A stretch of 29,890 bases of DNA from positions 1 to 29,890 of IMG/VR virus record IMGVR_UViG_3300028844_007832. One strand, given 5' to 3'. Source of the DNA: a virus. Position 1 is the first letter of the stretch. Each line of letters starts with the position of its first letter. A program made the position numbers and the translations under genes. Shown here piece after piece: positions 3,559-21,575 of the stretch. The notes under the pieces were generated by a model. It had not been told where the DNA came from. It saw only the letters and a list, made by a program, of their open reading frames with translations, and made no database searches.

Positions 3559-3849
3559 TTAACTCGGTTTATTTTCTTTTACCGGCACAAAATTGCCTGT
3601 TTTAGGGTCAAGAGTACCTGCACCATACTTATCACTTAGAATCTTTACTAAATCTTGTTCTTTAACTTGATTCTTTTTCCATTCATCACGAATAGAACTT
3701 TCTCTATTTTCAATAGTAGTTGCTCTGTCTTCTACTAATATTTTTTGAACTCCAAGATTACCTAACTCTGTTTGTAGAGCGCTGTAAGTATCTGCTACTT
3801 CGTTTATTTGTTTTAGTTCATCTTCTGAGAACTTTGTTTCGTTAGCCAT
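3559..3849 (-). CDS. Small coiled-coil protein, conserved phage hypothetical
   Basis: This 96-aa, charged, mostly helical protein has a central helix (residues about 10-70) rich in E, K, Q and L that looks like a coiled coil, then a terminal turn LSDKYGAGTLDPKTGNFVP. Proteins of this kind, with a coiled coil ending in a 'KYG-G-(I/L)D---G-F' signature, are common unassigned proteins next to structural genes in marine and Bacteroidetes phages as I recall them; no function is known to me. The start at 3849 is supported by AAGGAG seven bases upstream, and the gene overlaps the end of the glycosyltransferase gene by 8 bases. It sits between the sugar module and the tail sheath; a virion or assembly role is more likely than sugar metabolism, but this is only positional inference. 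Confidence 0.8.
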   Translation of the reverse strand: MANETKFSEDELKQINEVADTYSALQTELGNLGVQKILVEDRATTIENRESSIRDEWKKNQVKEQDLVKILSDKYGAGTLDPKTGNFVPVKENKPS

Positions 3850-4549
3850 TCGATTTCTCCTTAACTAATTTGTTATATGTTTCTACCCATTTGTCTTTGT
3901 ATTGACCGTTCCACGTAGTATGCCAAGGCCCGCCACGTGTATAGTGAATTGCTTTTGGGTTAATATTATCGTTATACCATCCTTCTAACCAATTAAAAGT
4001 TGCTGGTATCTCTCCAACACACTCATCACTTGTCCATTCAAATCTATGTAACCACTTTGCATTTTTTGCATTAATATTTTTAACACTTAATTTTTTAATA
4101 TCAGGATGTGAACAATTAAACATCATTAGACTTGACCAATTTTTTCTTGGATAATGTGTCTGTGCTTTTCCATCCATCTTTGTACTTTCAGGAGGTGTAT
4201 AATTGTGTTTTACACACATAACTGAATACTTTTCATCGTAGTAATCTAATAACTCATTAACATCTGTTTGCCACAAAAAATCAGAATCACAAAATAATGC
4301 TATTCCTTTATAACCATTAAGATGTGGAGTAAGAAATCTACTATAAACAAACTCTGTACTTGAAAGATAGTCTGCTTGTCGCCAATAAATATTTTTTAAC
4401 TTTAATTCTGAGACAATTATAGGTTCTATATTAACACTTTTATTATATTTCTCTATTGAGTACTTAGATACTTGATACGGAGGGTTTACTACTTCTGAAA
4501 AATGTTCAGAGTAATCTTGCCTACTATCGTAACCTATATAAACATTCAT
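3842..4549 (-). CDS. GT8-like glycosyltransferase with DxD motif
   Basis: This 235-aa protein probably transfers a sugar from a nucleotide-sugar donor. It begins with a short beta strand MNVYIGYDSRQ, typical of GT-A fold enzymes, and has a DSD motif at residues 88-90 inside ALFCDSDFLW, the metal and nucleotide-binding site of GT8-type and related enzymes. Near residue 200 is AIHYTRGGPWH, resembling the C-terminal histidine-containing segment of that fold that helps bind the metal. The fold assignment is good; acceptor and donor are unknown. It is the last sugar gene of the module; its ATG overlaps the upstream SDR stop in ATGA (4549-4546), so translation is probably coupled. No signal peptide or membrane segment is visible, so it acts in the cytoplasm. 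Confidence 0.78.
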   Translation of the reverse strand: MNVYIGYDSRQDYSEHFSEVVNPPYQVSKYSIEKYNKSVNIEPIIVSELKLKNIYWRQADYLSSTEFVYSRFLTPHLNGYKGIALFCDSDFLWQTDVNELLDYYDEKYSVMCVKHNYTPPESTKMDGKAQTHYPRKNWSSLMMFNCSHPDIKKLSVKNINAKNAKWLHRFEWTSDECVGEIPATFNWLEGWYNDNINPKAIHYTRGGPWHTTWNGQYKDKWVETYNKLVKEKSNG

Positions 4550-5097
4550 CTATTTAATTTTTTTGCTTTTTCGTTTTGTACATTAACATATGAGTCTCTA
4601 TGCCAAGCAGATACTTCACCTATTTCGATATGTTGTGGTTGATTAATACACCACATAACAATATCAGCCATTTCTTTGTAAGTTAAACTTGATAAGTCTG
4701 ATTCAAGTAGTCCTGGATTTACATCTATTATCTTACATTTCTTATCTGTATTAAATCGTAGATTATGAGATAAGTGTGATAATGATGCTTTAGAAGCAGA
4801 GTACATAAACCCTTTAGATATATTGTCATACTTTGCTCTACTAATTATATTGACAATAGTTTTATCTTTATGTTTCCATCTATCAAACACTTCCATTAAC
4901 ATACGAGTTTGGTCAAACATTGGGTGTGCGTTGTTTATAAACAAGTCAAATTTTTCTAATTCAAAAATAATCTTTGCTCGTTCATAATTATCCGAAACAT
5001 CATAATCATTACTTGATGAAAACCCTTCTACATCATCAAATCGACTATATAGTTCTTTCCCTAAACCTTTAGTGTGACCTGTTATCGCTACTTTCAT
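4546..5097 (-). CDS. Short-chain dehydrogenase/reductase (SDR), short form
   Basis: This 183-aa protein has the SDR nucleotide-binding signature TGHTKGLG (residues 6-13, the TGxxxGxG motif), the NNA motif at 55-57 (FINNAHP) and the catalytic YxxxK as YSASK (Tyr99, Lys103), with a candidate catalytic Ser at 86 in NIISRAKY. These point to a classical NAD(P)-dependent oxidoreductase. It is shorter than usual (about 250 aa), missing part of the C-terminal substrate-binding region, so activity could be altered. The start at 5097 overlaps the radical SAM gene by 29 bases. In this neighbourhood the likely substrate is a sugar or sugar nucleotide, but nothing in the sequence fixes it. Confidence 0.85.
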   Translation of the reverse strand: MKVAITGHTKGLGKELYSRFDDVEGFSSSNDYDVSDNYERAKIIFELEKFDLFINNAHPMFDQTRMLMEVFDRWKHKDKTIVNIISRAKYDNISKGFMYSASKASLSHLSHNLRFNTDKKCKIIDVNPGLLESDLSSLTYKEMADIVMWCINQPQHIEIGEVSAWHRDSYVNVQNEKAKKLNR

Positions 5098-5983
5098 AAT
5101 ATCCGTTAATTAATTCAAAACTTGATTTACCAAATAAGTCACCCTTTACTGAACACGTATTACACGGGCTGTGACTTCTATCTCCAACTGAAAGTCTGTC
5201 ACGGACTTCTTTCATTTTGTCACCCATCCAAACATCCATAACAGAACTTTGAATTAAGTTACCAACTACTATTTCTCTACCCCAATCGTTTGAACAAAAT
5301 AAAACATCTCCATTCCAATCTACAAACATTTTATAATAAGGATAGTGACAAGGCTTTCCTTTTAAATTTTCGATGTCATCTTCATCGAATCCTATCCAAT
5401 CTATCATCCCACTTCTGTTATTTACAAATAATCCCCATTCATCTTGTGTATGATGCGCTCTTAATTTGTAATTATCTTCAGATATACCTGAATCTTTCAT
5501 TATTTTAACAAACGGCTCTATCTGTTCAAGTCCATCGTACAGATTTATGTACAACATATCCATACCACTTTTGTATATCTCTGTAACAGACTCTTTATTC
5601 AAAAAATCACCGTTAGTATTACATTCAAATACGTTATTAGGCAATTCTTTTCTCATAGCCTGTACAATTTCATTAAATTCTTTATTTAAAAAGTTTTCAC
5701 CAAACCCACTAAATGATATTCTACCTACATAATCAAATTCTGCTAAACGTTTCGCTATTGTAGTAGAATCTTCTATAGTTGTATTTAAATTTCTATTTGG
5801 ATAAACTTTAGGGTCGTGTCGTGGACAAAAAACACATTTACGATTACACAATTCTGTTAAATTCATTTCAACCGTTAATATACTATGTAACGGGTTAGTT
5901 GTATTTTCAATTAAATTTAAATGTTTCTTCTCTTGGTCTTTTCTATATTGAAGAAAACTATATTTATCATCAACTTTTTTCAT
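5069..5983 (-). CDS. Radical SAM/SPASM domain protein
   Basis: This 304-aa protein has the radical SAM cluster motif CxxxCxxC at Cys46, Cys50 and Cys53 (ELCNRKCVFCPRHDP), which binds a 4Fe-4S cluster and S-adenosylmethionine. The C-terminal third has CHYPYYKMFVDWNGDVLFC, then a 'GN(L)---S-MDVW' segment and CNTC, the layout of a SPASM domain that holds auxiliary iron-sulfur clusters. Such enzymes modify peptides (maturases) or small molecules including sugars; some are linked to cell-surface polysaccharide loci. The substrate is not evident. Two options fit the context: modification of a sugar in the pathway, or a peptide modification of the neighbouring Thr-rich protein. It overlaps the GT29-like gene by 14 bases and the SDR gene by 29, so it belongs to the same transcript. 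Confidence 0.88.
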   Translation of the reverse strand: MKKVDDKYSFLQYRKDQEKKHLNLIENTTNPLHSILTVEMNLTELCNRKCVFCPRHDPKVYPNRNLNTTIEDSTTIAKRLAEFDYVGRISFSGFGENFLNKEFNEIVQAMRKELPNNVFECNTNGDFLNKESVTEIYKSGMDMLYINLYDGLEQIEPFVKIMKDSGISEDNYKLRAHHTQDEWGLFVNNRSGMIDWIGFDEDDIENLKGKPCHYPYYKMFVDWNGDVLFCSNDWGREIVVGNLIQSSVMDVWMGDKMKEVRDRLSVGDRSHSPCNTCSVKGDLFGKSSFELINGYYESSDNRSH

Positions 5984-6752
5984 CAGCCCACTTATTGAAT
6001 ATAGTTCCGTCTAACCATTTTCTGTCGTATTTTATTTTTTCTTCTTTTAAATCAGACAAAACGTTCCACTTAATCTTCTTTTGTTTTTCTAACTTTTTAA
6101 CATAATCATATTCTAACTTACCATTATGTGGATGTGAACCACAATCTTTAATAGGAAGATACCAACTAAAAGGCTTATCTCCGCCTCCTCGTTTCTCGTC
6201 AGTTATTTTTCTAAAAAAATCAAATCCTATAATATCTAAACTTTTATAAGAAGTTACTTTGCGGGTAAAATATAATAAAGACATAAATCCAGCTGAAGGT
6301 CTCATTCCATTTTTAGGTCCTCTAACTCCATTACCGAATCCTTCCATATAGTTCAATTCATCTAATGTTTCTATAAGTTCAATATCACTAAACATATCTA
6401 TTTTAGGAATTTGTGGTAATGAGTTTTCCCACGGAATATTAGAGTCTACATCTAATAATTTAGTACGAACTCTATTAAATAATATCAAAGTATCTTTATA
6501 TTGGCCACTTTCAAAGTCATCTTTTAACGTTTTTACTACGTGAAATCTAAATGTACCTGTAATCCATATATCAGTTCTACTTCCAAGATTTTTATATTGA
6601 GCTTGTGTTTTTGCTATAGCAGCGCCGTGATGTATTACGACATCAAATGAGTCAATAAAATCACCATACTCATAGTTCATCATTTCTACAGAATTTCCTA
6701 CAAGTACGACTCTTTTATTTTTTAAAAATTCGTTAATAGGAATTGTTAGCAC
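5970..6752 (-). CDS. GT29 family (sialyltransferase-like) glycosyltransferase
   Basis: This 260-aa protein resembles the sialyltransferase family GT29. An N-terminal motif VVLVGNSVEMMNYEYGDFID, then SFDVVIHHG and NLGSRTDIWITG, matches the L-type sialylmotif, which binds CMP-sugar. A second motif, PSAGFMSLLYF followed by SLDIIGFDFF, matches the S-type motif, and a later HPHNGKLEYDYVKKL supplies a His near the C-terminus as in the family. CMP-sialic acid is the usual donor; a CMP-linked relative such as CMP-KDO is a reasonable alternative given the KdsA gene upstream. The start is GTG at 6752, sharing its G with the TAG stop of the cupin gene. No membrane anchor is seen, unlike eukaryotic members. 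Confidence 0.8.
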   Translation of the reverse strand: MLTIPINEFLKNKRVVLVGNSVEMMNYEYGDFIDSFDVVIHHGAAIAKTQAQYKNLGSRTDIWITGTFRFHVVKTLKDDFESGQYKDTLILFNRVRTKLLDVDSNIPWENSLPQIPKIDMFSDIELIETLDELNYMEGFGNGVRGPKNGMRPSAGFMSLLYFTRKVTSYKSLDIIGFDFFRKITDEKRGGGDKPFSWYLPIKDCGSHPHNGKLEYDYVKKLEKQKKIKWNVLSDLKEEKIKYDRKWLDGTIFNKWADEKS

Positions 6753-7096
6753 TAAACACCACCTACAGATTCTCTTTCAATATCATTGTGATTTAGTTCA
6801 GCCCAATAAAATTCATAACAAATAGTTTTTGCGTTTGCTTTAAAACTATGATATTCTCCTGGCTTTGCTATAGTCATATCACCTGCTTTTAACGTAGTTG
6901 TATCCACTAAATCATAATCATTTTTGTAGATTATAATATCTAATTCACCACTTTCTACATAAAAGGCATTAAATTTATATTTGTGTTTATGTTTTGAACA
7001 ATATCCGCCTTTATTTACTTCTATCCTGTGTACTTCAAAATTAGGATTAGAAAATATATTTGCGGTCTTGCCCCATACTTTTCCTGCTGTGTGCAT
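6752..7096 (-). CDS. Small single-domain cupin
   Basis: This 114-aa protein has both cupin motifs. Motif 1 spans GGYCSKHKHKYKFNAFYVESG (residues 30-50), with likely metal ligands His36 and His38. Motif 2 is GDMTIAKPGEYHSFKAN (residues 72-88) with His83. The usual motif 1 glutamate is not at its expected place, so activity may differ from typical metal-dependent cupins. Small cupins in polysaccharide loci are often sugar isomerases, epimerases or the mannose-6-phosphate isomerase type; here the reaction cannot be named. It starts 2 bases after the KdsA stop and its own stop overlaps the next start, so it is in the same operon and probably acts on a sugar or sugar phosphate. Confidence 0.8.
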   Translation of the reverse strand: MHTAGKVWGKTANIFSNPNFEVHRIEVNKGGYCSKHKHKYKFNAFYVESGELDIIIYKNDYDLVDTTTLKAGDMTIAKPGEYHSFKANAKTICYEFYWAELNHNDIERESVGGV

Positions 7097-7097
7097 A

Positions 7098-8537
7098 TTA
7101 TATCCTTGGTTTAGGTTTATCTTTGGGATTGTTCCATCGAATCATAGGAACCTTTACTTTGTTAGATTTGACTTCTTCGTCTTCTTTTCTTTTATAATAA
7201 TCATTAGGTAAAGTTATCATTCTGAGTTTTGCGGGCTCAGCTGTAAAAGATACGAAAATATCTAATTCTTTTTGGTCGTGTCTTTCTCTTAAAAAGTTTA
7301 ACTTTTGTATCCACCACTCTATAGGTCTTCTTTTAGGTTCAAGTTGTAAAAATATTAGTCTTGTAGCAGAATTAAAAATAGTGACTAAATTTAAATCAAC
7401 TTCTGCAGGATTTAACGTATCGAGAAATCCGTCACAAGCTATCACTTCTGATTTATTCTCACCCATAGACTCTAAATCGTCAGTATTTGAGATAATAACA
7501 CTTTTAGTTAAGTTTCTTTCATCCATTAATTTTGTACAAGTTGTCGTAAACGGATTAGAATCTGATAAAGTATTAGATGGTTTTTCAGGTAACGGAATAT
7601 CATCAAAATTCATAACATTAATTTGATTTGTATCCATATGTGATTGATACTTTTTGTTGAGTCGGTCTTTATACATTGTTTTACTATTTTTTGCTTGACT
7701 TTCTCCTAAAACCGCACTAGGTGATTTTTTGACCTTAGCCGGCTTCATTTTTAGATTTGAAATAACTTCTTCTAAGTCACCTAAAGGCCATTGTGTTGAT
7801 GCATCTGATTTAGCACTTTCAGGGTCAGGGTGTGTTTCAAAAAATACGCCATCACAACCGACAGCAACTGCGGCTTTAGCAAGATAAGGAACCATATTTC
7901 TCATACCAGCTGTAGTTGTTCCGTTTCCTCCTGGAAGTTGATTACTATGTGTTGCATCAAATATTATAGGGAATCCAAACTCTTGCATTATAGGTATCGA
8001 CCTCATATCAACAACAAGATTGTTATAACCAAATTGAGTTCCTCTTTCTGTAATTAAAATATTTTCATTACCTTCTTCTGTAATTTTTATTATAACATTT
8101 TCAATTTCCCAAGGTGATAAAAATTGACCTTTTTTAACATTTACTACTTTGCCTGTCTGTGCTACTTCTTTTATCAAATCAGTTTGTCTACACAAAAATG
8201 CTGGTATTTGAATTATATCAACTACTTCTGCTACTTCTTTTACGTGGTGTACTTCGTGAACATCAGTAAGTACAGGCATACCTGTTTCTTCTTTTACTCT
8301 TCTAAGTGCTTCCAATCCCTTTTCTATACCAGGACCTCTATAAGATGAATTAGAAGAACGATTTGCTTTATCCCAAGAACTTTTGTATACTATCGGAGTT
8401 TTAGTGTTTTTTCCTATTTTAACAAGTTGTTTTGCGACATCCATTGAAAGTTTATATGATTCAATAACACAAGGCCCTGCAATTATAGGTGTCTCATCGC
8501 CACCGAATACTACATTTGAAACCGAAACTTTTTTCAT
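7098..8537 (-). CDS. kdsA: KDO-8-phosphate synthase (metal-dependent class) with extra C-terminal domain
   Basis: Residues 1-270 are a KdsA enzyme, which condenses phosphoenolpyruvate with arabinose-5-phosphate to KDO-8-phosphate for LPS or capsule. Visible family motifs are AGPCVIES (20-27), KANRSS (57-62), RGPG (67-70), QIPAFLCRQTDL (110-121) and ETHPDPE (234-240). Cys23, His197, Glu234 and Asp245 match the four metal ligands of the Aquifex enzyme (Cys11, His185, Glu222, Asp233 as I recall) with a constant offset of 12, so this is the metal-dependent class; the E. coli type has Asn instead of Cys. KANRSS separates it from DAHP and sialic acid synthases. Residues about 271-479 are an extension not found in ordinary KdsA (about 270-285 aa). 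It has a low-complexity linker and a segment with weak resemblance to the C-terminal half of small SAM methyltransferases (NPAEVDL...IFLQL...IEWW). An AGGAG site precedes the ATG. Confidence 0.95.
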   Translation of the reverse strand: MKKVSVSNVVFGGDETPIIAGPCVIESYKLSMDVAKQLVKIGKNTKTPIVYKSSWDKANRSSNSSYRGPGIEKGLEALRRVKEETGMPVLTDVHEVHHVKEVAEVVDIIQIPAFLCRQTDLIKEVAQTGKVVNVKKGQFLSPWEIENVIIKITEEGNENILITERGTQFGYNNLVVDMRSIPIMQEFGFPIIFDATHSNQLPGGNGTTTAGMRNMVPYLAKAAVAVGCDGVFFETHPDPESAKSDASTQWPLGDLEEVISNLKMKPAKVKKSPSAVLGESQAKNSKTMYKDRLNKKYQSHMDTNQINVMNFDDIPLPEKPSNTLSDSNPFTTTCTKLMDERNLTKSVIISNTDDLESMGENKSEVIACDGFLDTLNPAEVDLNLVTIFNSATRLIFLQLEPKRRPIEWWIQKLNFLRERHDQKELDIFVSFTAEPAKLRMITLPNDYYKRKEDEEVKSNKVKVPMIRWNNPKDKPKPRI

Positions 8538-8546
8538 TTTAAACTC

Positions 8547-9518
8547 CTAAGATTTTTTCTTTTTAAATTCTTCAGTTTTGACAATAGGGTCATCACGAAC
8601 AAATACTTCATACCATAATTCTCGCTCTTTATGTATATAAGTCAAATAGTCATCTATTTTTTTCTTCCAATTTCCATCTACTCGAGGATTAATTATTCCA
8701 CATTTAGGACTTGAGAGAACTTTATTAATAAAATAGTGAGTATCTTGGCCTCGAACTTCAGACATAAACAAAGGCCAATTCATATGATAAAATGAACCCC
8801 ACGCCATATCCTGATGTACTTCTATATGGTCAAGTTCTTTTTCTAAACAAACTGCATATAAAGAAGATTCACTAATATTAGTACTATATATTCTTGGTAC
8901 TTTCATCATAAAAGCATACAAATCTGCTTCACGCGGAAGTATACACGATTCACCAAATAAATCTTTCAATTCTCCTATAATTTGATGTTGTGTTATTGGA
9001 TGTGGTTTAAATAAAACTTTATCTCCGTGTCTATCTTTAATAGTTTTTAATTTATTTAAACAAACTCTACTTTTAATTTTATTAGAACCAGGTAAAACTA
9101 CTAATGCTTCAAGTTCTCTATCAAATTTTGGGTCTTCAGTTAAATCTATCCTGTCTTGATATTTGTTAGATACTTTATTTTCTACGTTCTCTTTAAAATA
9201 TGTTACCCAATCTAATATTGGATATTCTTCAGTTTCTTCATCATAATATGCATCTCGTATCTGTTGTTCTCTCATTATTTGACTCAACGGACACATCATA
9301 AATGAAGTAGCGTATTCAGTATAATTTATAGTTTTAAAATAGGCTATTTCGTTAGCCATTACATCATATGAAAATTCAGTAGTATACCGTTTCATACGTT
9401 TTCTAAAATATTTATCCACTCCTGCGAGATTATCAACTAAATATTTATTTTTTTCGTACTCCCCTATCCTTTCATTAGCAACGGAAGGGTCAAACATTTC
9501 AGATTTCATTTTAGGCAT
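8547..9518 (-). CDS. KPHP-motif glycosyltransferase-like protein (KDO/capsule transferase-like)
   Basis: This 323-aa protein is not firmly recognised. Residues about 165-175 contain VLFKPHPIT, a 'KPHP' motif found in GT-B-like transferases of capsule and teichoic acid synthesis (KpsC/KpsS, polysialyl- and glycerophosphotransferases). About 45 residues later STNISESSLYAVCLEKEL resembles the 'S-x-S-x-x-x-(E/Y)A' nucleotide-binding element that pairs with it. The N-terminal half is charged and helical, without clear motifs. It is the first gene of the sugar module, preceded by the AT motif at 9553-9560 and an AAGGAG site, and followed after 9 bases by kdsA, so it could be the transferase for a KDO-type sugar. 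That function is inference from position and motif only. Confidence 0.6.
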   Translation of the reverse strand: MPKMKSEMFDPSVANERIGEYEKNKYLVDNLAGVDKYFRKRMKRYTTEFSYDVMANEIAYFKTINYTEYATSFMMCPLSQIMREQQIRDAYYDEETEEYPILDWVTYFKENVENKVSNKYQDRIDLTEDPKFDRELEALVVLPGSNKIKSRVCLNKLKTIKDRHGDKVLFKPHPITQHQIIGELKDLFGESCILPREADLYAFMMKVPRIYSTNISESSLYAVCLEKELDHIEVHQDMAWGSFYHMNWPLFMSEVRGQDTHYFINKVLSSPKCGIINPRVDGNWKKKIDDYLTYIHKERELWYEVFVRDDPIVKTEEFKKKKS

Positions 9519-9548
9519 TATAACTCCTTAGATAACCTTTTATATACA

Positions 9549-9566
9549 CATATATAAATATAAAGT
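9549..9566 (-). promoter_or_regulatory. AT-rich motif between giant gene and sugar module (candidate promoter)
   Basis: The minus strand reads TTATATTTATATATGTG, with TATTTATA at 9560-9553, 34 bases before the start of the 323-aa gene. It contains the 12-mer TATTTATATATG shared with the gp18 and gp13 upstream gaps. It would allow the sugar module to be transcribed independently of the 10-kb repeat gene. No stem-loop terminator is visible between the giant gene stop and this motif. Confidence 0.55.
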
Positions 9567-9589
9567 TTTTTTTCTAAAAGTGATTTTTT

Positions 9590-12500: not shown

Positions 12501-15500
12501 GTTGTAGTATTAAAAGTTGTTATTGTATTAAAAGTAGTTATTGTAGCATATGCAGTAGTGGTAGTTGTATTTGTATTAAAAGTTGTACTTGTAATATATG
12601 CAGTAATTGTAGTGTATTGGGTTACGGTGTTTTTATTAGTATTAAAAGTTGTTATTGTACTTTTTGAAGTAGAAGTAGCCCTTTGTTCAATAGTTGATTT
12701 AGTAGTGTTAAAAGTTGTAGTTGTGGTTGTTATTGTATTAAAAGTTGTTATTGTATTAAACGTTGTAATTGTACTAAACGTGGTTGTAGTTTCTTTTGAA
12801 GTTTCAAAAGTTGTACTTGTGGTATAAGTTGTAATCGTATTAAAAGTAGTTGTAGTATTTTTAGTAGTATTAAAAGTTGTACTTGTAGTATAAGTTGTAA
12901 TCGTATTAAACGTAGTAATTGTAGTTGTAGTTGTATTAAAAGTTGTTATTGTACTATAAGTTGTTAGTGTAGAATACGTAGTTGTAGTATTTTTTGAAGT
13001 CGATGTAGCACGTGTTTCAATAGTATTTCTACTTGTTTCAAAAGTTGTACTTGTAATGTATGAAGTAATTGTATTAAAAACGGTAGAAGTATTTTTAGTA
13101 GTATTAAAAGTTGTTGAAGTAGTGTAGGTTGTTATTGTATTAAACGTGGTAAGTGTAGTTGTAGTTGTATTAAAAGTTGTTATTGTACTATAAGTTGTTA
13201 GTGTTGCGTATGAAGTAGTAGTCGAATATGCTGTAATTGTATTAAAAGTAGTTGTGGTAGTTGTATTTGTAGCAAAAGTTGTTGAAGTAGTGTAGGTTGT
13301 AATCGTATTAAAAGTAGTTGTGGTATTTTTAGTAGTATTAAAAGTTGTTGAGGTAGTGTAGGTTGTTATTGTATTAAAAATAGTTTCTGTTGTTTTTGTA
13401 GTATTAAAAGTTGTTATCGTACTATACGTTGTAAGTGTAGCATACGAAGTAGTAGTCGAATATGCTGTAATCGTATTAAAGGTAGTAAGTGTAGTTGTAG
13501 TAGTAGCAAAAGTTGTACTTGTAATATATGCAGTAATTGTATTAAAGGTAGTTATGGTATTTTTAGTAGTAGCAAAAGTTGTTATTGTACTATAAATTGT
13601 AGTTGTAGAATATGTAGTAGTGGTAGTTGTGTTTGTATTAAAAGTTGTTGTTGTACTATACGTTGTAAGTGTTGCATATGAAGTAGTAGTACTTGCTGTG
13701 GTATTATACGTTGTAATAGTTGAATACGTAGTAATCGTAGTGTATTGAGTTACGGTATTTTTATTAGTATTAAAAGTTGTTATTGTACTTTTTGAAGTAG
13801 AAGTAGCACGTTTTTCAATAGTTGTTGTATTAGTATTGTAAGTTGTGATTGTAGTCGTTGTAGTATTAAAAGTTGTTATTGTACTATACGTTGTAAGTGT
13901 AGAATACGTAGTTGTAGTTTCTTTAATAGTATTAAAAGTTGTTGAAGTGGTGTAGGTTGTTATTGTATTAAAAGTTGTTATAGTATTTTTTGAAGTAATT
14001 GTATTAAAAACGGTAGTGGTATTTTTAGTAGTATTAAAAGTTGTTGAAGTGGTGTAAGTTGTAATTGTATTAAAAACGGTAGAAGTTGTCTTCGATGTAA
14101 TTGTATTTCTTGTTTCAATAGTTGATATTGATGTATTATAAGATGTTATAGTTAGCACACTTTGTGTTGTATTTCTTGATTCTATTGTATTTCTACTTGT
14201 GTTATAAAACGTAATAGTAGAGTAAGTTGTTATTGTATTAAAAGTAGTAGTAACCGTTTTCGATGTATTATACTGAGTAAGAGTATTTTTTGAAGTAGCA
14301 GTAGCCCTTGATTCTGCTGTTAATTTTAACGTATTAAACCTCGTTGATGTATTAAAAATAGTAGTAGTATTTTTAGTAGTATTAAAAGTTGTACTTGTGT
14401 TAAATGCTGATGCAGTTGTTCTCGAAGTGAGCCTATAAGTTGTTTTGTTTGTTATAAAGAAAGTATAATGTTTTGTAATAGTATTAAAAGTTGTAGTTCT
14501 TGAAGTATTCTTAGAAGTAGTTCTAACAGGTGAACCTCCAGGCCCATTTCCATAGCCTACCCACGTTGAGTAAGATGTGATGTAGGTCGTAGTTTTCGAA
14601 GTAGCTGTAGCATAGTAAGTTAGTTTATAAGTATTCTTTGCTGTGATGAAGTACGTATAATACGTAGTAGTCACATCCGTTGTTGTCTGAGTATTTTTTG
14701 ATGTGTTATAAACGGTAGAAGTGTTTCTCGAAGTAGAAGTTGTTCTTGTGGTATTATACTCCGTCACGGTAGAGTAGGTTGTTATTGTATTAAACGCGGT
14801 AATGGTATTCTTTGATGTAATGAAAGTTGTAGTAGTGTTTTTTGAAGTTGCAGTAGCTCTTGTTTCTATTGTACTTTTGTTTGTAACCATCACCGTAGAA
14901 GTTGTGTAGGTTGTTGTATAAGTTGTTATTGTAGCAGTAGCTTTAGTAGTAATGAAAGTTGTTGTTGTACTATAAGTTGTAAGTGTTGCATATGAAGTAG
15001 TAGTATTTTTTGAAGTAGAAGTAGCTCTTGTTTCTATTGTATTTCTACTTGTGTTGTAAGTAGTAATAGTATTTTTTGAAGTACTTGTAGCATATGCGGT
15101 ACTTGTGTTTTTTGAAGTAGATGTAGCTCTTGTTTCTATTGTATTTTTACTTGTATTATACGTTGTAATCGTAATTCTTGAAGTGATAGTGTTTCTTGTT
15201 TCAATAGTACTCCTGGTAGTGTTGTAAGTAGTAATAGTAGACTTTGAAGTTTCATAAGTTGTAGTTGTAATGAATGAAGTAATTGTATTAAAAGTAGTTA
15301 TAGTACTCTTAGTAGTATTAAAAGTTGTTGAAGTTACTTTTGAAGTTGAAGTGCTTCGTGTCTCAATAGTGCTTAAAGTAGTAGCATAAGTTGTTATGGT
15401 ACTTTTTGAAGTGATAGTGTTTCTTGTTTCAATAGTACTCCTGGTAGTGTTATACGTTGTTGTAGTAGTTTTCGAAGTAATTGTATTTCGTGATTCAATA

Positions 15501-18500
15501 GTTGCTAATGTTGTATTGTAAGTTGTAATAGTGTTTTTTGAAGTAGAAGTAGCCCTTGTTTCTAATGTGTTTCTACTTGTGTTATAAGTAGTAATAGTAT
15601 TCTTTGAAGTAGAAGTTGCTCTTTGTTCAATAGTACTTTTTGAAGTGATAGTGTTTCTTGTTTCAATAGTACTTAAAGTAGTATTATAAGTAGTAATAGT
15701 ATTTTTTGAAGTAGAAGTTGCTCTTTGTTCAATAGTATTTCTACTTGTGTTGTAAGTAGTAATAGTATTTCTTGAAGTAGAAGTAGCTCTTGTTTCTATT
15801 GTATTTCTACTTGTGTTGTAAGTAGTAATAGTATTTTTTGAAGTTGAGGTGCTTCTTTGTTCAATAGTAATTCTTGAAGTTATTGTATTTCTTGTTTCAA
15901 TAGTACTCCTGGTAGTGTTATACGTTGTTATGGTATTCTTTGAAGTAGAAGTTGCTCTTTGTTCAATAGTATTTCTACTTGTGTTGTAAGTAGTAATAGT
16001 ATTTTTTGAAGTTGATGTAGCTCTTGTTTCTAAAGTATTTCTACTTGTTTCAAAAGTTGTTGAGGTAGTATAAGTTGTTATTGTATTAAACGTTGTGATA
16101 GTTGTTTTTGAAGTAATTGTATTTCTTGTTTCAATAGTACTCCTGGTAGTGTTGTAAGTAGTAATAGTATTTTTTGAAGTCGAAGTTGCTCTTTGTTCAA
16201 TAGTATTTCTACTTGTGTTGTAAGTAGTAATAGTATTTTTTGAAGTAGAAGTAGCCCGTGTTTCTATTGTATTTTTACTTGTATTATACGTTGTAATCGT
16301 AATTCTTGAAGTAGCAGTATTTCTTGATGTTGATGTTGCTAAAGTAGTATTATAAGTCGTAATAGTTGACCTGGAAGTATTAAAAGTTGTTATGGTCGCA
16401 TACGTAGTAATGGTGTTAAAAGTAGTTATAGTGCTTTTAGTGGTATTAAAAGTTGTTGATGTTGTCTTTGATGTTGAGGTTGACCTTGTTTCTAAAGTAT
16501 TTTTAGAAGTATTATAAGTAGTAGTAGTTGTCTTTGAGGTAATAGTGCTTCTTGATGTTGATGTTGCTAAAGTAGTATTGTAAGTGGTAATAGTTGACCT
16601 AGAGGTATTAAAAGTTGTGATAGTTGAATAAGTGGTAATTGTATTAAAGGTAGTTATAGTGCTTTTAGTAGTATTAAAAGTTGTTGAAGTTACCTTCGAT
16701 GTACTTGTAATTCTTGATGTTGCAGTCGATAGTGTAGTAGCATACTTTGTAATAGTTGACTTAGAAGTTTCATACGTAGTAATGGTCGCATACGTAGTAA
16801 TAGTATTAAAAGTAGTTATAGTCGTCTTCGAAGTTTCAAAAGTTGTAGTAGTAGACTTTGAAGTAGCGGTTGCCAATGTTGTAGCAGTATTATAAGTTGT
16901 TATTGTATTAAAAGTAGTAATGGTTGTTTTAGAAGTATTATAGGTTGTAATAGTTGTTTTCGAAGTAATTGTATTTCGTGTTTCAATAGTATTTTTACTT
17001 GTATTAAAAGTAGTAATGGTTGTTTTAGAAGTATTATAGGTTGTAATAGTTGAATAAGTAGTAATTGTATTAAAAGTTGTAGTAGTGTTTTTCTGTGTAT
17101 TGAATGTAGTTGAAGTTGTCTTCGATGTTGAAGTGCTTCTTTGTTCAATAGTAGTTTTTGAAGTCTCAAAAGTTGTAATGGTTTCTAATGTTGTATTGTA
17201 AGTCGTAATAGTTGACTTAGAAGTTTCATAAGTTGTAGTTGTAATGAATGAAGTAATTGTATTAAAGGTAGTTATAGTGCTTTTGGTAGTATTAAAAGTT
17301 GTTGAAGTTACTTTAGATGTTGAAGTACTTCTTTGTTCAATAGTAGTTTTTGAAGTTTCGTACTTTGTAATAGTTGTTGTATTTGTTTCAAACGTAGTAA
17401 TTGTTTCAAAAGTAGTTATTGTAGCATATGCAGTAGTAGTAGTTTTTGAAGTTTCATAAGTTGTTATAGTCGCATACGTAGTAATAGTATTAAAAGTAGT
17501 TATAGTACTTTTAGTAGTGTTGAATGTAGTTGAAGTTACTTTAGATGTTGAAGTAGACCTCTGTTCAATAGTAGATAATGTTGTGTTATAAGTTGTAATA
17601 GTTGTCTTCGAAGTTTCATAAGTTGTTATTGTATTAAACGTTGTAATTGTATTGAAAGTTGTAGTAGTTGTTTTTGAAGTTTCAAACGTTGTGGTAGTAG
17701 ACTTCGAAGTAGCAGTTGCCAATGTTGTTGCAGTATCGTATGTAGTAATTGTATTAAATGTAGTAATAGTATTCTTCGTAGTATTAAAAGTTGTAATAGT
17801 TGTTTTTGAAGTAATCGTAGACTTAGAAGTAATAGTTGCTAATGTTGTATTGTAAGTTGTTATAGTTGACTTAGAAGTTTCATACGTAGTAATAGTTGAA
17901 TATGTAGTGATTGTATTAAAAGTTGTAATAGTGTTTTTAGTAGTATTAAAAGTTGTTGAAGTTACCTTCGATGTTGAAGTGCTTCTTTGTTCAATAGTTG
18001 ATAATGTGGTGTTGTAAGTAGTAATAGTATTTCTTGAAGTAGATGTACTTTTTGAAGTAGAGGTTGCTAATGTGGTATTAAAAGTAGTAATAGTTGTCTT
18101 CGAAGTTTCATAAGTTGTTATTGTATTAAACGTTGTAATCGTATTAAAAGTAGTTATAGTACTTTTAGTAGTATTAAAAGTTGTTGAAGTTACCTTCGAT
18201 GTTGAAGTACTTCTTTGTTCAATAGTTGCTAATGTTGTAGCATACTTTGTAATAGTTGACTTAGAAGTTTCATAAGTTGTAGTAGTTGTTTTCGAAGTTT
18301 CATACGTAGTAATAGTTGAATATGTAGTGATTGTATTAAAAGTTGTAATAGTGTTTTTAGTAGTATTAAAAGTTGTTGAAGTTACTTTTGAAGTTGAAGT
18401 AACTAAAGTTGTTGCTGTAGCTAAAGTAGTATTATAAGTTGTTATAGTTGACTTAGAAGTATTATAAGTGGTTGTAGTTGTCTTCGAAGTTTCAAAAGTT

Positions 18501-19519
18501 GTAGTAGTGTTTTTTGAAGTAGCAGTTGCTAAAGTAGTAGCAGTATCATATGTGGTAATGGTATTAAACGTTGTAATAGTACTTTTAGTAGTATTAAAAG
18601 TTGTTGAAGTTACCTTCGATGTTGAAGTAGTCCTCTGTTCAATAGTAGTTTTTGAAGTCTCAAAAGTTGTAATGGTAGTTGTTGTAGTATTAAAGGTTGT
18701 AATAGTTGACTTCGAAGTTTCGTAAGTTGTTATTGTATTAAAAGTAGTAATAGTATTAAACGTGGTGATGGTACTCTTCGTAGTATTAAAAGTTGTTGCA
18801 GTTACTTTTGAAGTACTCGTAGCTATTGATGTTGATGTTGACCTTGTAGTATTGTAAGTAGTAATAGTTGACTTAGAAGTTTCATACGTAGTAATAGTTT
18901 CATATGTAGTGATTGTATTAAACGTGGTTATAGTGTTTTTAGTAGTATTAAAAGTTGTTGAAGTTACCTTCGATGTTGAAGTTTCTAAAGTAGTAGCGGT
19001 GTTAAAAGTAGTAATAGTATTAAACGTGGTGATGGTACTCTTCGTAGTATTAAAAGTTGTTGCAGTTACTTTTGAAGTCGAAGTAACTAAAGTTGTTGCA
19101 GTTGATAATGTGGTATTATAGGTCGTGGTGGTTTCTTTTGTAGTATTAAAAGTTGTAGTAGTGTTTTTTGAAGTAGCAGTTGCTAAAGTAGTAGCAGTAT
19201 CATACGTTGTAATCGTATTAAAAGTAGTTATAGTATTTTTAGTAGTATTAAAAGTTGTTGATGTTACTTTTGATGTACTATATTCAGTAGTAGTTTCTTT
19301 TGTAGTATTAAAAGTTGATGTGGTATTTTTAGTAGTATTAAAAGTTGTTATAGTTTCTTTTGTAGTATTAAAAGTTGTTATAGTACTTTGTGAAGTCGCA
19401 GTTGCTAATTTCGTAGCAGTTGCTAAAGTTGTAGACCTGGTGGTATTAGTAGCCTTAGTTGTATTAAACTCTGTGCTGAATTTTAATTCGTCAAGAAACC
19501 CAAAAGCGCCGTTTGCCAT
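9590..19519 (-). CDS. Giant threonine-rich repeat protein (3309 aa), putative mucin-like or fibrous virion/adhesion protein
   Basis: I do not recognise a named family. After a short unique start (MANGAFGFLDELKFSTEF) nearly the whole protein is built from two interleaved units: a six-residue unit such as TFNTIT or TYETIT, and a ten-residue unit such as TFNTTKSTIT, with interposed TSTSKVTST and IEQR/IETR blocks. Thr dominates, with Asn, Ser, Ile, Phe/Tyr and Lys/Arg. I see no Cys, a single Trp (residue 1653), and Gly or Pro essentially only in one central patch (about 1655-1664). Residues alternate as expected for beta strands, so a beta-solenoid or fibrous rod is plausible; dense Thr/Ser also suits O-glycosylation. 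There is no recognisable C-terminal receptor domain; it ends in SRITSYYVS. The frame stays open over 9.9 kb, which argues for selection. The start has an AAGGGAT site, 17 bases after a small fibre-like gene; the sugar module follows. Confidence 0.85.
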   Translation of the reverse strand: MANGAFGFLDELKFSTEFNTTKATNTTRSTTLATATKLATATSQSTITTFNTTKETITTFNTTKNTTSTFNTTKETTTEYSTSKVTSTTFNTTKNTITTFNTITTYDTATTLATATSKNTTTTFNTTKETTTTYNTTLSTATTLVTSTSKVTATTFNTTKSTITTFNTITTFNTATTLETSTSKVTSTTFNTTKNTITTFNTITTYETITTYETSKSTITTYNTTRSTSTSIATSTSKVTATTFNTTKSTITTFNTITTFNTITTYETSKSTITTFNTTTTTITTFETSKTTIEQRTTSTSKVTSTTFNTTKSTITTFNTITTYDTATTLATATSKNTTTTFETSKTTTTTYNTSKSTITTYNTTLATATTLVTSTSKVTSTTFNTTKNTITTFNTITTYSTITTYETSKTTTTTYETSKSTITKYATTLATIEQRSTSTSKVTSTTFNTTKSTITTFNTITTFNTITTYETSKTTITTFNTTLATSTSKSTSTSRNTITTYNTTLSTIEQRSTSTSKVTSTTFNTTKNTITTFNTITTYSTITTYETSKSTITTYNTTLATITSKSTITSKTTITTFNTTKNTITTFNTITTYDTATTLATATSKSTTTTFETSKTTTTTFNTITTFNTITTYETSKTTITTYNTTLSTIEQRSTSTSKVTSTTFNTTKSTITTFNTITTYATITTYETSKTTTTAYATITTFETITTFETNTTTITKYETSKTTIEQRSTSTSKVTSTTFNTTKSTITTFNTITSFITTTTYETSKSTITTYNTTLETITTFETSKTTIEQRSTSTSKTTSTTFNTQKNTTTTFNTITTYSTITTYNTSKTTITTFNTSKNTIETRNTITSKTTITTYNTSKTTITTFNTITTYNTATTLATATSKSTTTTFETSKTTITTFNTITTYATITTYETSKSTITKYATTLSTATSRITSTSKVTSTTFNTTKSTITTFNTITTYSTITTFNTSRSTITTYNTTLATSTSRSTITSKTTTTTYNTSKNTLETRSTSTSKTTSTTFNTTKSTITTFNTITTYATITTFNTSRSTITTYNTTLATSTSRNTATSRITITTYNTSKNTIETRATSTSKNTITTYNTSRNTIEQRATSTSKNTITTYNTTRSTIETRNTITSKTTITTFNTITTYTTSTTFETSRNTLETRATSTSKNTITTYNTSRNTIEQRATSTSKNTITTYNTTRSTIETRNTITSRITIEQRSTSTSKNTITTYNTSRNTIETRATSTSRNTITTYNTSRNTIEQRATSTSKNTITTYNTTLSTIETRNTITSKSTIEQRATSTSKNTITTYNTSRNTLETRATSTSKNTITTYNTTLATIESRNTITSKTTTTTYNTTRSTIETRNTITSKSTITTYATTLSTIETRSTSTSKVTSTTFNTTKSTITTFNTITSFITTTTYETSKSTITTYNTTRSTIETRNTITSRITITTYNTSKNTIETRATSTSKNTSTAYATSTSKNTITTYNTSRNTIETRATSTSKNTTTSYATLTTYSTTTTFITTKATATITTYTTTYTTSTVMVTNKSTIETRATATSKNTTTTFITSKNTITAFNTITTYSTVTEYNTTRTTSTSRNTSTVYNTSKNTQTTTDVTTTYYTYFITAKNTYKLTYYATATSKTTTYITSYSTWVGYGNGPGGSPVRTTSKNTSRTTTFNTITKHYTFFITNKTTYRLTSRTTASAFNTSTTFNTTKNTTTIFNTSTRFNTLKLTAESRATATSKNTLTQYNTSKTVTTTFNTITTYSTITFYNTSRNTIESRNTTQSVLTITSYNTSISTIETRNTITSKTTSTVFNTITTYTTSTTFNTTKNTTTVFNTITSKNTITTFNTITTYTTSTTFNTIKETTTTYSTLTTYSTITTFNTTTTTITTYNTNTTTIEKRATSTSKSTITTFNTNKNTVTQYTTITTYSTITTYNTTASTTTSYATLTTYSTTTTFNTNTTTTTTYSTTTIYSTITTFATTKNTITTFNTITAYITSTTFATTTTTLTTFNTITAYSTTTSYATLTTYSTITTFNTTKTTETIFNTITTYTTSTTFNTTKNTTTTFNTITTYTTSTTFATNTTTTTTFNTITAYSTTTSYATLTTYSTITTFNTTTTTLTTFNTITTYTTSTTFNTTKNTSTVFNTITSYITSTTFETSRNTIETRATSTSKNTTTTYSTLTTYSTITTFNTTTTTITTFNTITTYTTSTTFNTTKNTTTTFNTITTYTTSTTFETSKETTTTFSTITTFNTITTFNTITTTTTTFNTTKSTIEQRATSTSKSTITTFNTNKNTVTQYTTITAYITSTTFNTNTTTTTAYATITTFNTITTFNTTTTTTTTFNTTKSTIEQRATSTSKNTITTFNTNKNTVTQYTTTTTFSTITTFNTTTTTTTTFNTTTTTIETRSTSTDRETTTTFNTTKTTITTFNTITTYDTATTLATATSRNTTTTFETNTTTTTAYATLTTYTTSTTFNTTLETTTTFNTTTSTIETRATSTSRSTTTTFETNKNTNTVYNTITAYSTTTTYNTTLATITTFNTTTTTTTTYNTFQNTIEQRATSTSKSTITTFNTNKNTVTQYTTITTYETTTTFNTTKSTTTTYNTTRSTITSKSTITSKTTTTTFNTTTSTIETRATATSKSTTTTFETNKNTVTQYTTITTYSTITTFETSKETTTTFNTTTSTSTSKSTSTSKTTTTTFNTTKTTITTYNTITTYNTATTLATATSKNTTTTFETSKSTTTAYATITTFETITTFNTTTTTTTTFNTTTSTIETRATSTSKNTTTTFETNKNTVTQYTTITTYSTITTFETNTTTTTTFNTITTFNTITTFNTTKSTTTTYNTTTSTATTLATATSKSTITTFETNKNTVTQYTTITTYETITTFNTTTTTTTTFNTNTTTTTTFNTTTTTIEQRATSTSKNTTTTFETNKNTVTQYTTITTFNTITTFETNTTTTTTFETNTTTTTIYNTTKNTSTIFNTITTYNTATTLATATSKSTTTTFETNKNTVTQYTTITIYETTTAYNTTLATITTYNTTQSTTTTYNTTTSTATTLATATSKSTITTFETNKNTVTQYTTITTFETITTFETNTTTTTTFNTTTTTIETRATSTSKNTITTFETNKNTVTQYTTITTFNTATTLATATTKSTITTFETNKNTVTQYTTITTFETITTFETNTTTTTTFNTTTTTSTIYNTITTYNTATTLATATSKNTTTTFETNKNTNTVYNTTTTTTTTFETTKTTTTTFETSTTTTTTFNTTKSTITTFNTITTFNTITTFTTTFETITTYNTSRITSYYVS
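9600..13800 (-). repeat. C-terminal repeat zone of giant gene (NKNTVTQYTT cassette family)
   Basis: This zone encodes alternating T-F/Y-N/E-T and I/T-T units with a distinctive cassette NKNTVTQYTTIT, of which I count twelve copies, all in the C-terminal half. Copies are often followed by TTYSTITTF or TTFETITTF and preceded by ATSTSK/ATATSK blocks. Copies differ at synonymous positions, so they are not a recent perfect amplification. Unit sizes of 18 and 30 bases are multiples of three and preserve the frame. Confidence 0.85.
14424..14680 (-). other. Non-repetitive midpoint segment of the giant protein (candidate hinge)
   Basis: The segment encodes STWVGYGNGPGGSPVR, with the single Trp at residue 1653 (14563-14561) of 3309, two residues from the exact centre. 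It holds the only Gly/Pro-rich stretch of the repeat region. Two related segments flank it: YYTYFITAKNTYKLT on the N-terminal side and HYTFFITNKTTYRLT on the C-terminal side. This looks like a flexible joint or folded knob between two long arms. Confidence 0.7.
15000..16300 (-). repeat. 66-bp tandem repeats in the giant gene (22-residue units)
   Basis: Here the gene is built of near-identical 22-residue units: an ATSTSK or NTITSK block, an NTITTYNT block, then SRNT or TRST and IE(Q/T)R. At DNA level the plus-strand text 'atttctacttgtgttgtaag' recurs at 66-base steps (for example near 15733, 15799, 15973 and 16205, allowing for interposed variants). The units are Lys/Arg-rich, so this part of the protein is basic. 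These are the least diverged copies in the gene and could be the most recently expanded. Confidence 0.8.
16400..19480 (-). repeat. N-terminal repeat zone of giant gene (TSKVTSTTFNTTKSTIT cassette family)
   Basis: This zone encodes many copies of a cassette TSKVTSTTFNTTKSTITTF followed by one or more TTFNTIT or TTYETIT units, punctuated by TIEQRST or TLATATSK. The SKVTSTTFN cassette is abundant here, has a last outlier near 15320-15358, and is absent from the C-terminal half, so the two halves evolved from different cassettes. Confidence 0.85.
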
Positions 19520-19536: not shown

Positions 19537-19947
19537 TTATGAAAACGGGCCTAAATAGTTGACTGCCACGTTACTTGTGTTGACCACGTAATACGACATT
19601 AAAGAAATGCCGTTGGCGGATGTGTCAAATGATATAGAATCTCCTCGAGGGGTTTTAAACAATGAATTTAATGTTATTGAATGACCACCTGAACTATCTT
19701 GTATTAGTGCGATAAGTCCACTTTGTCCTTCACGGCCTGATAAGGCGGTTGGAGTTAAAGTAACGTTACCGGTTAAAGTAAGATTATAATTGTTCTTTGC
19801 AGATAAGTCAATGTTATTAGCACCGGTTATAGAAGTCGAAGTTTGAGTTACGGTAAATGCACCATTAATCTGTACATTACCGCTACTTGTAACTTCGTTT
19901 AGTACGGCATTACTGCCTGATGTTATTACTTTTTTCCAATTTGGCAT
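19537..19947 (-). CDS. Small fibre-like virion protein with WKKVI-SGSN N-terminus
   Basis: This 136-aa protein starts MPNWKKVITSGSNAVLNEVTS, closely matching the first 20 residues of the 354-aa protein encoded upstream (20436-21500). The remainder is strand-rich, with alternating hydrophobic and polar residues (ITGANNIDLSAKNNYNLTLT, then VTLTPTALSGREGQSGLIAL), as in small phage fibre or decoration domains. No enzymatic motif is visible. The shared N-terminus probably attaches both proteins to the same virion site. The gene ends 17 bases before the giant Thr-rich gene and no terminator lies between, so the two are probably co-transcribed; it could be an adaptor, cap or partner of the giant protein. 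This is inference from adjacency. Confidence 0.8.
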   Translation of the reverse strand: MPNWKKVITSGSNAVLNEVTSSGNVQINGAFTVTQTSTSITGANNIDLSAKNNYNLTLTGNVTLTPTALSGREGQSGLIALIQDSSGGHSITLNSLFKTPRGDSISFDTSANGISLMSYYVVNTSNVAVNYLGPFS

Positions 19948-20028
19948 CTACTACTTCTCCTACTATACGGTTGGTTACTTCTTTTGAAGCCCACTTCCCT
20001 TAACGGGCCAATATAGACTATACTACTA

Positions 20029-20414: not shown

Positions 20415-20435
20415 ATGTAACCTTTATCTTCTATT

Positions 20436-21500: not shown

Positions 21501-21535
21501 TACTTTTCTCCCCTAATTCGGCTATTCATCTTCAC

Positions 21536-21549: not shown

Positions 21550-21575
21550 TTTTTAAAAAATTGTGTCATCATCTA

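What the first reader, a model, noticed from the sequence alone, without database searches (positions are those of the whole stretch)
3842..19519. A phage mucin? Thr-rich giant protein next to its own glycosylation module
The module after the giant gene encodes KdsA, a sialyltransferase-like GT29, a DxD glycosyltransferase, a KPHP transferase-like protein, a cupin, an SDR and a radical SAM/SPASM protein. A protein with thousands of Thr/Ser hydroxyls and almost no other chemistry is the textbook acceptor for O-glycans, and acidic nonulosonic or KDO-type sugars could cap them. Physical linkage between a Thr/Ser-rich acceptor and glycosyltransferases is how several bacterial protein glycosylation systems are organised. 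This could be a self-contained, undescribed system that makes a glycosylated virion coat, perhaps for host glycan mimicry or adsorption.
Basis: inference. Interest (0 to 1): 0.9.

Follow-up and report, generated by a model that had tools for sequence, protein, structure and literature searches.

The report
Phage Thr-rich fibre with own glycosyltransferase
Several unrelated groups of bacterial viruses carry a very threonine-rich repeat protein that appears to be part of the virus particle, nearly always followed by a gene for an enzyme shaped like those that attach the acidic sugar Kdo, which suggests these viruses sugar-coat their own fibres.

Summary
ORF 9590-19519 (-) encodes 3309 aa, 47% Thr, and the seven genes after it are as described. 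The conserved partner of Thr-rich repeat proteins is one gene, the 'KPHP' protein (8547-9518). Of 56 distinct KPHP homologues found without using Thr-richness and with 600 b or more of upstream sequence, 52 have a Thr/Ser-rich ORF within 1.2 kb upstream. No KPHP match was found in 793 bacterial genomes. Its AlphaFold model (pLDDT 88.5) best matches the Kdo transferases KpsC and WbbB (Z up to 10.8), and the next window gene is a true Kdo-8-phosphate synthase. In one phage group the Thr-rich region is fused to a baseplate protein. The other enzymes (KdsA, cupin, GT29-like, rSAM, SDR, DxD-GT) are an add-on of the window clade; GT29-like and DxD genes recur near Thr-rich plus KPHP in a second lineage. 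Best reading: a fibrous virion protein O-glycosylated by a dedicated phage enzyme. Glycan, sugar and function remain inferred.

The parts
9590..19519 (-). Giant Thr-rich repeat protein, 3309 aa; repeat units of 6 and 10 residues (with 22-residue super-periods) in a two-residue register; short conserved N-terminus MANGAFGFLDELKF
8547..9518 (-). KPHP protein, 323 aa: GT-B-type transferase-like, Kdo/sialyltransferase-like fold, found in phages only in the sets searched; the conserved partner of Thr-rich proteins
7098..8537 (-). KdsA, Kdo-8-phosphate synthase (about residues 1-268), with a ~210-aa C-terminal extension conserved in the clade and of unknown function
6752..7096 (-). Cupin (Cupin_2; weak WbuC-like match below cut-off)
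5970..6752 (-). GT29 (sialyltransferase)-like protein
5069..5983 (-). Radical SAM/SPASM protein
4546..5097 (-). Short-chain dehydrogenase/reductase
3842..4549 (-). DxD glycosyltransferase-like protein (phrog_28018, unknown function)
3559..3849 (-). Small 96-aa protein that flanks the insert on the sheath side in relatives with and without giant and module
1050..3479 (-). Tail sheath (T4 gp18-like), downstream flank
401..889 (-). Tail tube protein
19537..19947 (-). 136-aa fibre-like protein just upstream of the giant; upstream flank of the insert
20436..21500 (-). 354-aa fibre-like protein; relatives recur in this interval
23310..24185 (-). Tail sheath stabiliser-like
24675..25790 (-). Head-tail adaptor-like (phrog_211)
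25915..27468 (-). Major head protein (T4 gp23-like)

Best explanation
The giant protein is an extended, beta-rich virion fibre. Its Thr/Ser side chains are O-glycosylated in the infected cell by the KPHP protein, a phage GT-B transferase of the Kdo/sialyltransferase type that travels with such fibres across many phage lineages. KPHP probably uses a CMP-activated acidic sugar. Phages carrying KPHP alone would draw on the CMP-Kdo that Gram-negative hosts make for LPS. The window clade adds its own Kdo-8-phosphate synthase to raise supply (KdsB and KdsC coming from the host), and a GT29-like and a DxD transferase plus rSAM, SDR and cupin enzymes to extend or modify the glycan. Shown here: the gene pairing and its breadth, absence of KPHP from the bacterial genomes sampled, the fold match, the KdsA identity, selection on Thr, and fusion of Thr-rich regions to a baseplate domain in one phage group. 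Inferred: virion location of the giant itself, catalysis by KPHP, Thr as acceptor, Kdo as donor, and the biological role (a hydrated anionic coat that shields the virion or tunes adsorption).
For: Forward test: from 10 isolate loci and 79 viral-contig loci found by KPHP similarity, 62 distinct KPHP proteins, 56 with 600 b or more upstream; 52 of these have a Thr/Ser-rich ORF within 1.2 kb upstream (148-1977 aa, median 642; T at least 0.3 in 39), 40 within 150 b. Background: of 76 gp18 loci scored as without KPHP (666 kb), 2 hold a rich ORF, 72 aa and on the other strand; 0 of 22 genome loci. Lullwater's whole genome has one rich ORF of 80 aa or more, the one directly upstream of KPHP. Reverse test: of 72 new loci found with a Thr-rich query, 47 have KPHP 13-243 b downstream, 11 could not be judged, and 14 are a baseplate group; on 4 of 12 of that group's records KPHP lies elsewhere, again beside a second Thr-rich ORF (3 of the 4 look near-identical). 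KPHP model pLDDT 88.5; Foldseek ranks 1-5 and VIA-align ranks 1-10 are Kdo transferases (WbbB, KrkA, KpsC), rank 11 a polysialyltransferase. Invariant D52, K119, Y120, G144, N146, K171, H173, P174, E217 among others in 36 sequences. KPHP in 0 of 398 and 0 of 395 bacterial genomes; the same query matches 7 of 15 phage records. KdsA is the next gene and a true KDO8P synthase. GT29-like genes recur near Thr-rich + KPHP in six contigs of a second lineage. The Thr-rich protein contains a baseplate wedge domain in 8 of 14 loci of the baseplate group (L316 confirmed by PHROGs). Precedent for Kdo on protein Ser/Thr: CbMaf (PMC11339370, abstract read).
Against: No glycan, enzyme or virion data. Stenotrophomonas phage DLP_6 has KPHP (51% to L340's) and no rich ORF above 147 aa in its genome; L183 and L187 also lack one, and Cr30's neighbour (T 20%, S 7%) is below threshold. 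In a high-GC genome short chance ORFs pass the threshold: 8 in 168 kb of DLP_6, about a 6% chance of one within 1.2 kb. By sequence the KPHP profile finds no solved Kdo transferase, and Pfam matches are few and weak: GT52 in 1, Capsule_synth in 1, polyST in 2 of 36. Foldseek TM-scores are low (0.30-0.43 for ranks 1-5), and other GT-B enzymes reach Z 9.0 over a shorter stretch. The catalytic Asp of KpsC/WbbB could not be mapped. No KdsB was found on a 126-kb relative. The giant's N-terminal 318 aa gave no fold (pLDDT 25.8). The 14 baseplate-group loci have large Thr-rich proteins without KPHP beside them, and 8 of 12 of their records (18.7-68 kb fragments) show none. GT29-like (63-75%) and KdsA (68-77%) are no better conserved in the clade than the sheath (66-80%).
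Confidence: 0.62

Rival explanations
1. The module remodels the host surface (LPS or capsule), for example to block superinfection or change a receptor, and only happens to sit beside the giant. The giant is an unmodified fibre.
For: Kdo is an LPS/capsule sugar and KpsC-type enzymes act on lipids (recalled); Kdo and GT cassettes occur in other phages away from any Thr-rich gene seen: L143/L144, cyanophage S-SCSM2R near psbA.
Against: KPHP follows Thr-rich genes in 52 of 56 testable cases found independently of Thr content, gave no match in 793 bacterial genomes, and the block lies among head and tail genes. The rival may still fit the add-on enzymes alone.
Confidence: 0.15
2. KPHP is a non-catalytic GT-fold chaperone that helps the long Thr-rich fibre fold or assemble, as tail-fibre assembly proteins encoded next to fibres do.
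For: Position directly downstream of the fibre gene is typical of fibre chaperones (recalled); the giant does not fold alone in prediction.
Against: Invariant KxHP, N146, E217 and other polar residues, in an alignment whose outer members are 18-23% identical to the window's, and best fold matches to Kdo transferases look like an active site; KdsA and GT-like genes are added beside it in the window clade, and GT-like genes in a second lineage.
Confidence: 0.1
3. KPHP glycosylates the fibre, but with another sugar (a nonulosonic acid or an ordinary hexose), and KdsA serves another step.
For: Weak Pfam hits are to GT52 and polysialyltransferase as well as to Capsule_synth; the fold list continues into UDP- and TDP-sugar GT-B enzymes at Z 7.5-9; no KdsB on the 126-kb relative.
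Against: The ten best VIA-align matches are Kdo transferases and KdsA directly follows KPHP on 7 of 7 relative contigs that cover both.
Confidence: 0.25

Closest known systems
Virion glycosylation of mycobacteriophages (Freeman et al. 2023; paper not held, seen only as described in a passage of PMC12619734)
   Same: Phage virion proteins carry glycans; phage-encoded glycosyltransferases (the latter recalled)
   Different: There the acceptors are C-termini of capsid and tail tube proteins; here a dedicated, very long Thr-rich repeat protein, with a Kdo-transferase-like enzyme and its own Kdo-8-P synthase
Serine-rich repeat glycoprotein adhesins of Gram-positive bacteria with adjacent glycosyltransferases (recalled)
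   Same: Giant repeat acceptor, core transferase always beside it, further transferases variable
   Different: Thr not Ser; in phages; no GtfA/GtfB or SecA2 relation looked for; virion rather than cell wall
Maf flagellin glycosyltransferases (PMC11339370, abstract read)
   Same: Direct O-linkage of an ulosonic acid, including Kdo, to Ser/Thr of a filament protein
   Different: Another enzyme family (recalled; not compared here); flagellin is not a Thr-rich repeat protein
KpsC / WbbB / KrkA Kdo transferases
   Same: Best structural matches of the KPHP model
   Different: No sequence match by profile; known acceptors are glycolipids or polysaccharides (recalled)

Membership tests
KDO-8-phosphate synthase (KdsA) | Match above the curated cut-off of the equivalog model TIGR01362 | tested here: met
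   388 bits against 314
KpsC/WbbB-type Kdo transferases | Same overall fold | tested here: met
   VIA-align Z 10.8, 230 of 323 residues, 3.9 A to KpsC 6mgb; Foldseek E 9e-5 to WbbB, TM 0.3-0.43; from a predicted model
KpsC/WbbB-type Kdo transferases | Family profile (Pfam Capsule_synth) or sequence similarity | tested here: inconclusive
   Capsule_synth in 1 of 36 members, E 0.006; no hit to solved Kdo transferases by profile
KpsC/WbbB-type Kdo transferases | Catalytic Asp that carries the Kdo adduct | not testable with these tools
   No residue-level structural alignment is given; D52 is the only invariant Asp
KpsC/WbbB-type Kdo transferases | Transfer of Kdo from CMP-Kdo | not testable with these tools
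   Needs an assay
GT29 | Pfam Glyco_transf_29 above gathering score | tested here: met
   24.6 bits against 23, over residues 13-68 only
GT29 | Sialyltransferase activity | not testable with these tools
   Weak profile hit to a solved sialyltransferase, E 0.005
Mucin (Pro-Thr-Ser domain) | Pro-rich PTS repeats | tested here: not met
   2 Pro in 3309 residues
Mucin (Pro-Thr-Ser domain) | Dense O-glycosylation | not testable with these tools
   Needs mass spectrometry
Phage virion protein glycosylation systems | Transferase gene linked to a gene for a virion protein | tested here: inconclusive
   Linkage of KPHP to Thr-rich genes is shown; a virion domain in the Thr-rich protein is shown only in the baseplate group, whose KPHP, where found, lies beside another Thr-rich gene; for the window giant it is inferred from position
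Phage virion protein glycosylation systems | Glycan found on the virion protein | not testable with these tools
   Needs mass spectrometry
Serine-rich repeat glycoprotein systems | GtfA/GtfB core transferases and accessory SecA2 export | not tested
   No search made; comparison is by likeness only

The most novel reading that the evidence does not exclude
A widespread, undescribed class of tailed-phage virion fibres made of Thr-rich beta repeats, each decorated at hundreds to more than a thousand sites with Kdo or a related ulosonic acid by a phage-only transferase family (KPHP). The window phage would display one of the most densely glycosylated proteins known from any virus, an anionic glycan brush built from host LPS sugar chemistry.
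Probability: 0.4. Interest if true: 0.9.

Novelty: new variant of a known kind. Interest (0 to 1): 0.78.

Why it matters
It would turn two sets of 'hypothetical proteins' (phrog_26179/phrog_30602 relatives, and Thr-rich ORFs of which some are not even annotated) into one testable system present in culturable phages (Caulobacter phage Lullwater, Vibrio phages QD01 and KVP40). It predicts a new family of protein O-ulosonyltransferases and a simple experiment: look for Kdo on Thr in virions. It would also explain why a phage carries Kdo-8-phosphate synthase inside its structural gene block.

Tried and rejected
Low-complexity artefact or non-coding ORF: rejected; the frame is open for 3309 codons, is kept in relatives, and dN/dS is 0.27.

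Module as an indivisible unit with the giant: rejected; KPHP pairs with Thr-rich genes without the rest.

Isolated phage relatives of the giant by tblastn: no match with a 500-aa N-terminal piece (the low-complexity filter is on, so this says little). Solved structures: none by sequence. Structure prediction of the giant's first 318 aa as a monomer gave nothing; a multimer could not be predicted.

KdsB on the 126-kb relative: not found (the family search rings in 11 of 14 control genomes). A cellular source for the cassette: 22 rSAM relatives in genomes, none with KdsA or cupin beside it (only the rSAM was used as query). Whether the L143/L144 cassettes continue into KPHP and the 306-322-aa gene of the second lineage: no sign at the contig ends.

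A8 contained one wrong row (a KdsA in a DxD-GT alignment) and is used for no claim. One search counts (81 of 85 distinct KPHP proteins) include loci found with a Thr-rich query, so searches are preferred. One locus, L126, was left out of the background set because of a blastp hit that the later profile did not confirm. Of the 80 loci, 79 entered (L046, a window-clade contig, did not); of the 45 isolate records, 10 representatives were fetched. Of the 77 loci, 72 were scored; 5 were already held from the KPHP scan.

Literature: searches. From titles and abstract beginnings none describes Thr-rich phage proteins paired with a transferase; the one listed paper with 'threonine-rich' and 'tail fiber' that I opened (PMC9973310, passages) means the host's S-layer. 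The library holds open-licence papers only. Papers: PMC12619734, PMC6821194 and PMC9973310, passages; PMC11339370, abstract; all others, search listing. Freeman et al. 2023 was not held.


Full report
What is there. The window is a whole IMG/VR record of 29,890 bases from a T4-like phage: tail tube, tail sheath, sheath stabiliser-like, head-tail adaptor-like and major head proteins lie on the minus strand. Between a fibre-like ORF (19537-19947) and a small 96-aa ORF next to the sheath gene sits a 16-kb block: the giant gene (9590-19519) and seven more genes (8547-9518 down to 3842-4549). Pfam, PHROGs and NCBIfam give the names listed under parts. KdsA is a true Kdo-8-phosphate synthase by its curated cut-off. 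KPHP and the DxD protein match no Pfam family at E 0.01.

The giant. It is 46.8% Thr and 9.6% Ser. Repeat units are 6 or 10 residues long, with a strong 22-residue period. The main spacings are even, so one residue parity holds T/F/K/Y/R/E/L and the other T/S/N/I/A/V over 3309 residues. Parity purity is 0.975, against 0.611 on average and 0.644 at most in 200 shuffles. Eight other Thr-rich proteins were measured: L340 1.0, L246 0.983, L297 0.972, L200 0.958, L193 0.894, L312 0.811, and the short ones of KVP40 and Lullwater 0.741 and 0.682. My inference is an extended beta structure with two faces. AlphaFold as a monomer sees nothing. Selection keeps Thr.

Window clade. Divergent relatives carry the same block as far as their contigs reach: L014/L029, L016, L017/L032 (a 126-kb contig), L018, L019 and L021. 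L021 and L047 lack rSAM and SDR. Between the flanking genes, 15 loci have both giant and module, 13 have neither, none has one alone; the 15 are the window and 7 contigs, several near-identical, and the 13 belong to more distant phages (sheath 38-53%), so few events are counted. Some module proteins are strongly conserved (cupin 95-96%, rSAM about 90%, KPHP 85-90%) while the sheath is 66-80%; GT29-like (63-75%) and KdsA (68-77%) are not (divergent members).

The turn. A tblastn of KPHP against isolated phages found only distant relatives, in Caulobacter and Vibrio phages. In Lullwater, Cr30 and KVP40 a small Thr-rich or Thr/Tyr-rich ORF lies just upstream. Searches with other members each return 45 isolate records: 35 Vibrio, 9 Caulobacter, 1 Stenotrophomonas. 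I fetched 10 representatives. Eight have a Thr/Ser-rich ORF over threshold just upstream (in KVP40 and its relatives with a small or overlapping reading frame between); Cr30's is weaker (T 20%, S 7%); DLP_6 has none. In Vibrio phages F86, D479 and D484 this ORF is not annotated.

Scale of the pairing. A viral-contig scan with a KPHP alignment returned 80 loci. Seventy-nine of these and the 10 isolate loci, with identical or contained proteins merged, give 62 distinct proteins; 56 have 600 b or more upstream, 52 of them have a rich ORF (80 aa or more, T at least 20%, T+S at least 30%) within 1.2 kb upstream, 40 within 150 b. The neighbours are 148-1977 aa long (median 642), 39 of 52 with T at least 30%. 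The misses are Cr30, L183, L187 and DLP_6. At 60% identity there are 16 clusters, and in 12 every member has the neighbour. Controls: 76 sheath loci scored as without KPHP (666 kb) hold two 72-aa opposite-strand ORFs over threshold, and 22 bacterial loci none. In high-GC genomes short chance ORFs do pass: 8 in the 168 kb of DLP_6, all 122 aa or shorter, which makes about a 6% chance of one within 1.2 kb (counted).

Reverse test. A Thr-rich protein (L246) as query gave 77 loci; I scored the 72 not already held. In 47 KPHP follows at 13-243 b. Seven were cut inside the window clade's own giant, three ran off the locus end, one had no rich ORF. Fourteen have a large Thr-rich protein without KPHP in the locus; many of the 47 are contigs already known from the first scan. 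All 14 lie among baseplate genes, and in 8 of them the Thr-rich protein itself contains the baseplate wedge domain; for L316 PHROGs confirms it (phrog_17744, residues 3-280). That makes this kind of Thr-rich protein a virion part. Of 12 records of this group searched whole, 4 have KPHP elsewhere and 8 (fragments of 18.7-68 kb) do not; in the 4, KPHP is again beside a second Thr-rich ORF and a neck-like gene. Three of the 4 look near-identical.

What KPHP is. With 36 sequences the model has pLDDT 88.5 and pTM 0.86. Foldseek's best five rows are WbbB, KrkA and KpsC, all Kdo transferases; VIA-align ranks KpsC and WbbB 1 to 10 with Z 10.8 to 9.6, then a polysialyltransferase at 9.5 and other GT-B enzymes at 9.0 and below. 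TM-scores are modest (0.30-0.43), and sequence profiles find no solved relative. KxHP, E217 and D52 are invariant. The family gave no match in 398 and 395 bacterial genomes of two phyla, while the same query matches phage records.

The other enzymes. Elsewhere they occur without KPHP: L143/L144 have rSAM, SDR, cupin, KdsB, a methyltransferase, KdsA, DxD-GT and GT29-like genes, in L143 beside a ribonucleotide reductase gene (Pfam). Both contigs are about 7 kb, so a Thr-rich gene elsewhere is not excluded. GT29-like genes (37-38% to the window's) recur near Thr-rich + KPHP in six contigs, L297-L299, L309, L311 and L326, after one more gene and on the opposite strand; the DxD gene (39-40%) follows on the three that reach far enough, L299, L311 and L326, and then a ribonucleotide reductase gene on L299 and L311. 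DLP_6 has the pair away from its KPHP. So these two are the most likely extension enzymes; KdsA, rSAM, SDR and cupin are clade-specific among Thr-rich loci seen here.

Mechanism proposed. Host or phage enzymes make CMP-Kdo; KPHP links it, or a relative of it, to Thr/Ser of the fibre; GT29-like and DxD-GT add to it; rSAM, SDR and cupin modify the sugar. There is a published precedent for Kdo on protein Ser/Thr, by Maf (PMC11339370, abstract). Each catalytic step is inference. Kdo as the sugar is the least certain part.

Novelty. Glycosylated phage virions are known. A dedicated Thr-rich fibre paired with a Kdo-transferase-like phage enzyme was not found in ten searches of an open-licence library. 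I rate it a new variant of a known kind.

Noticed in passing
L176:3113-3670, L177:3167-3679, L178:3162-3695: Thr-rich ORFs in Vibrio phages F86, D479 and D484 are missing from the annotation, partly overlapped by other called genes.
   Followed up: yes
window 7098-7733: KdsA carries a ~210-aa C-terminal extension, conserved in the clade and without a Pfam match.
   Followed up: no
L200:749-1897, L246:2452-3504: A methyltransferase-like gene lies between two Thr-rich genes in several KPHP contigs (weak Methyltransf_25 match for L246).
   Followed up: partly
L193:7089-8904, L246:7374-7952: Phage-encoded GroEL with a Cpn10 co-chaperonin, and a GroES-like gene, lie near the Thr-rich/KPHP pair.
   Followed up: partly
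L341:1-1655 and L344:15893-18489: DLP_6 has large unannotated ORFs at both record ends, one of them next to its KPHP gene; they look fibre-like by eye.
   Followed up: partly
L003:16512-18986 and 20001-22475: The 484-kb uncultured phage LR756508 encodes two divergent tail sheath proteins.
   Followed up: no
L147:7974-11499: Cyanophage S-SCSM2R carries kdsA, kdsB and a GT gene in the region of psbA and a carbohydrate phosphorylase.
   Followed up: no
L297:7011-7958, L302:10462-11104, L337:611-1486: A second protein without a Pfam match follows KPHP directly in several lineages; possibly another transferase.
   Followed up: no
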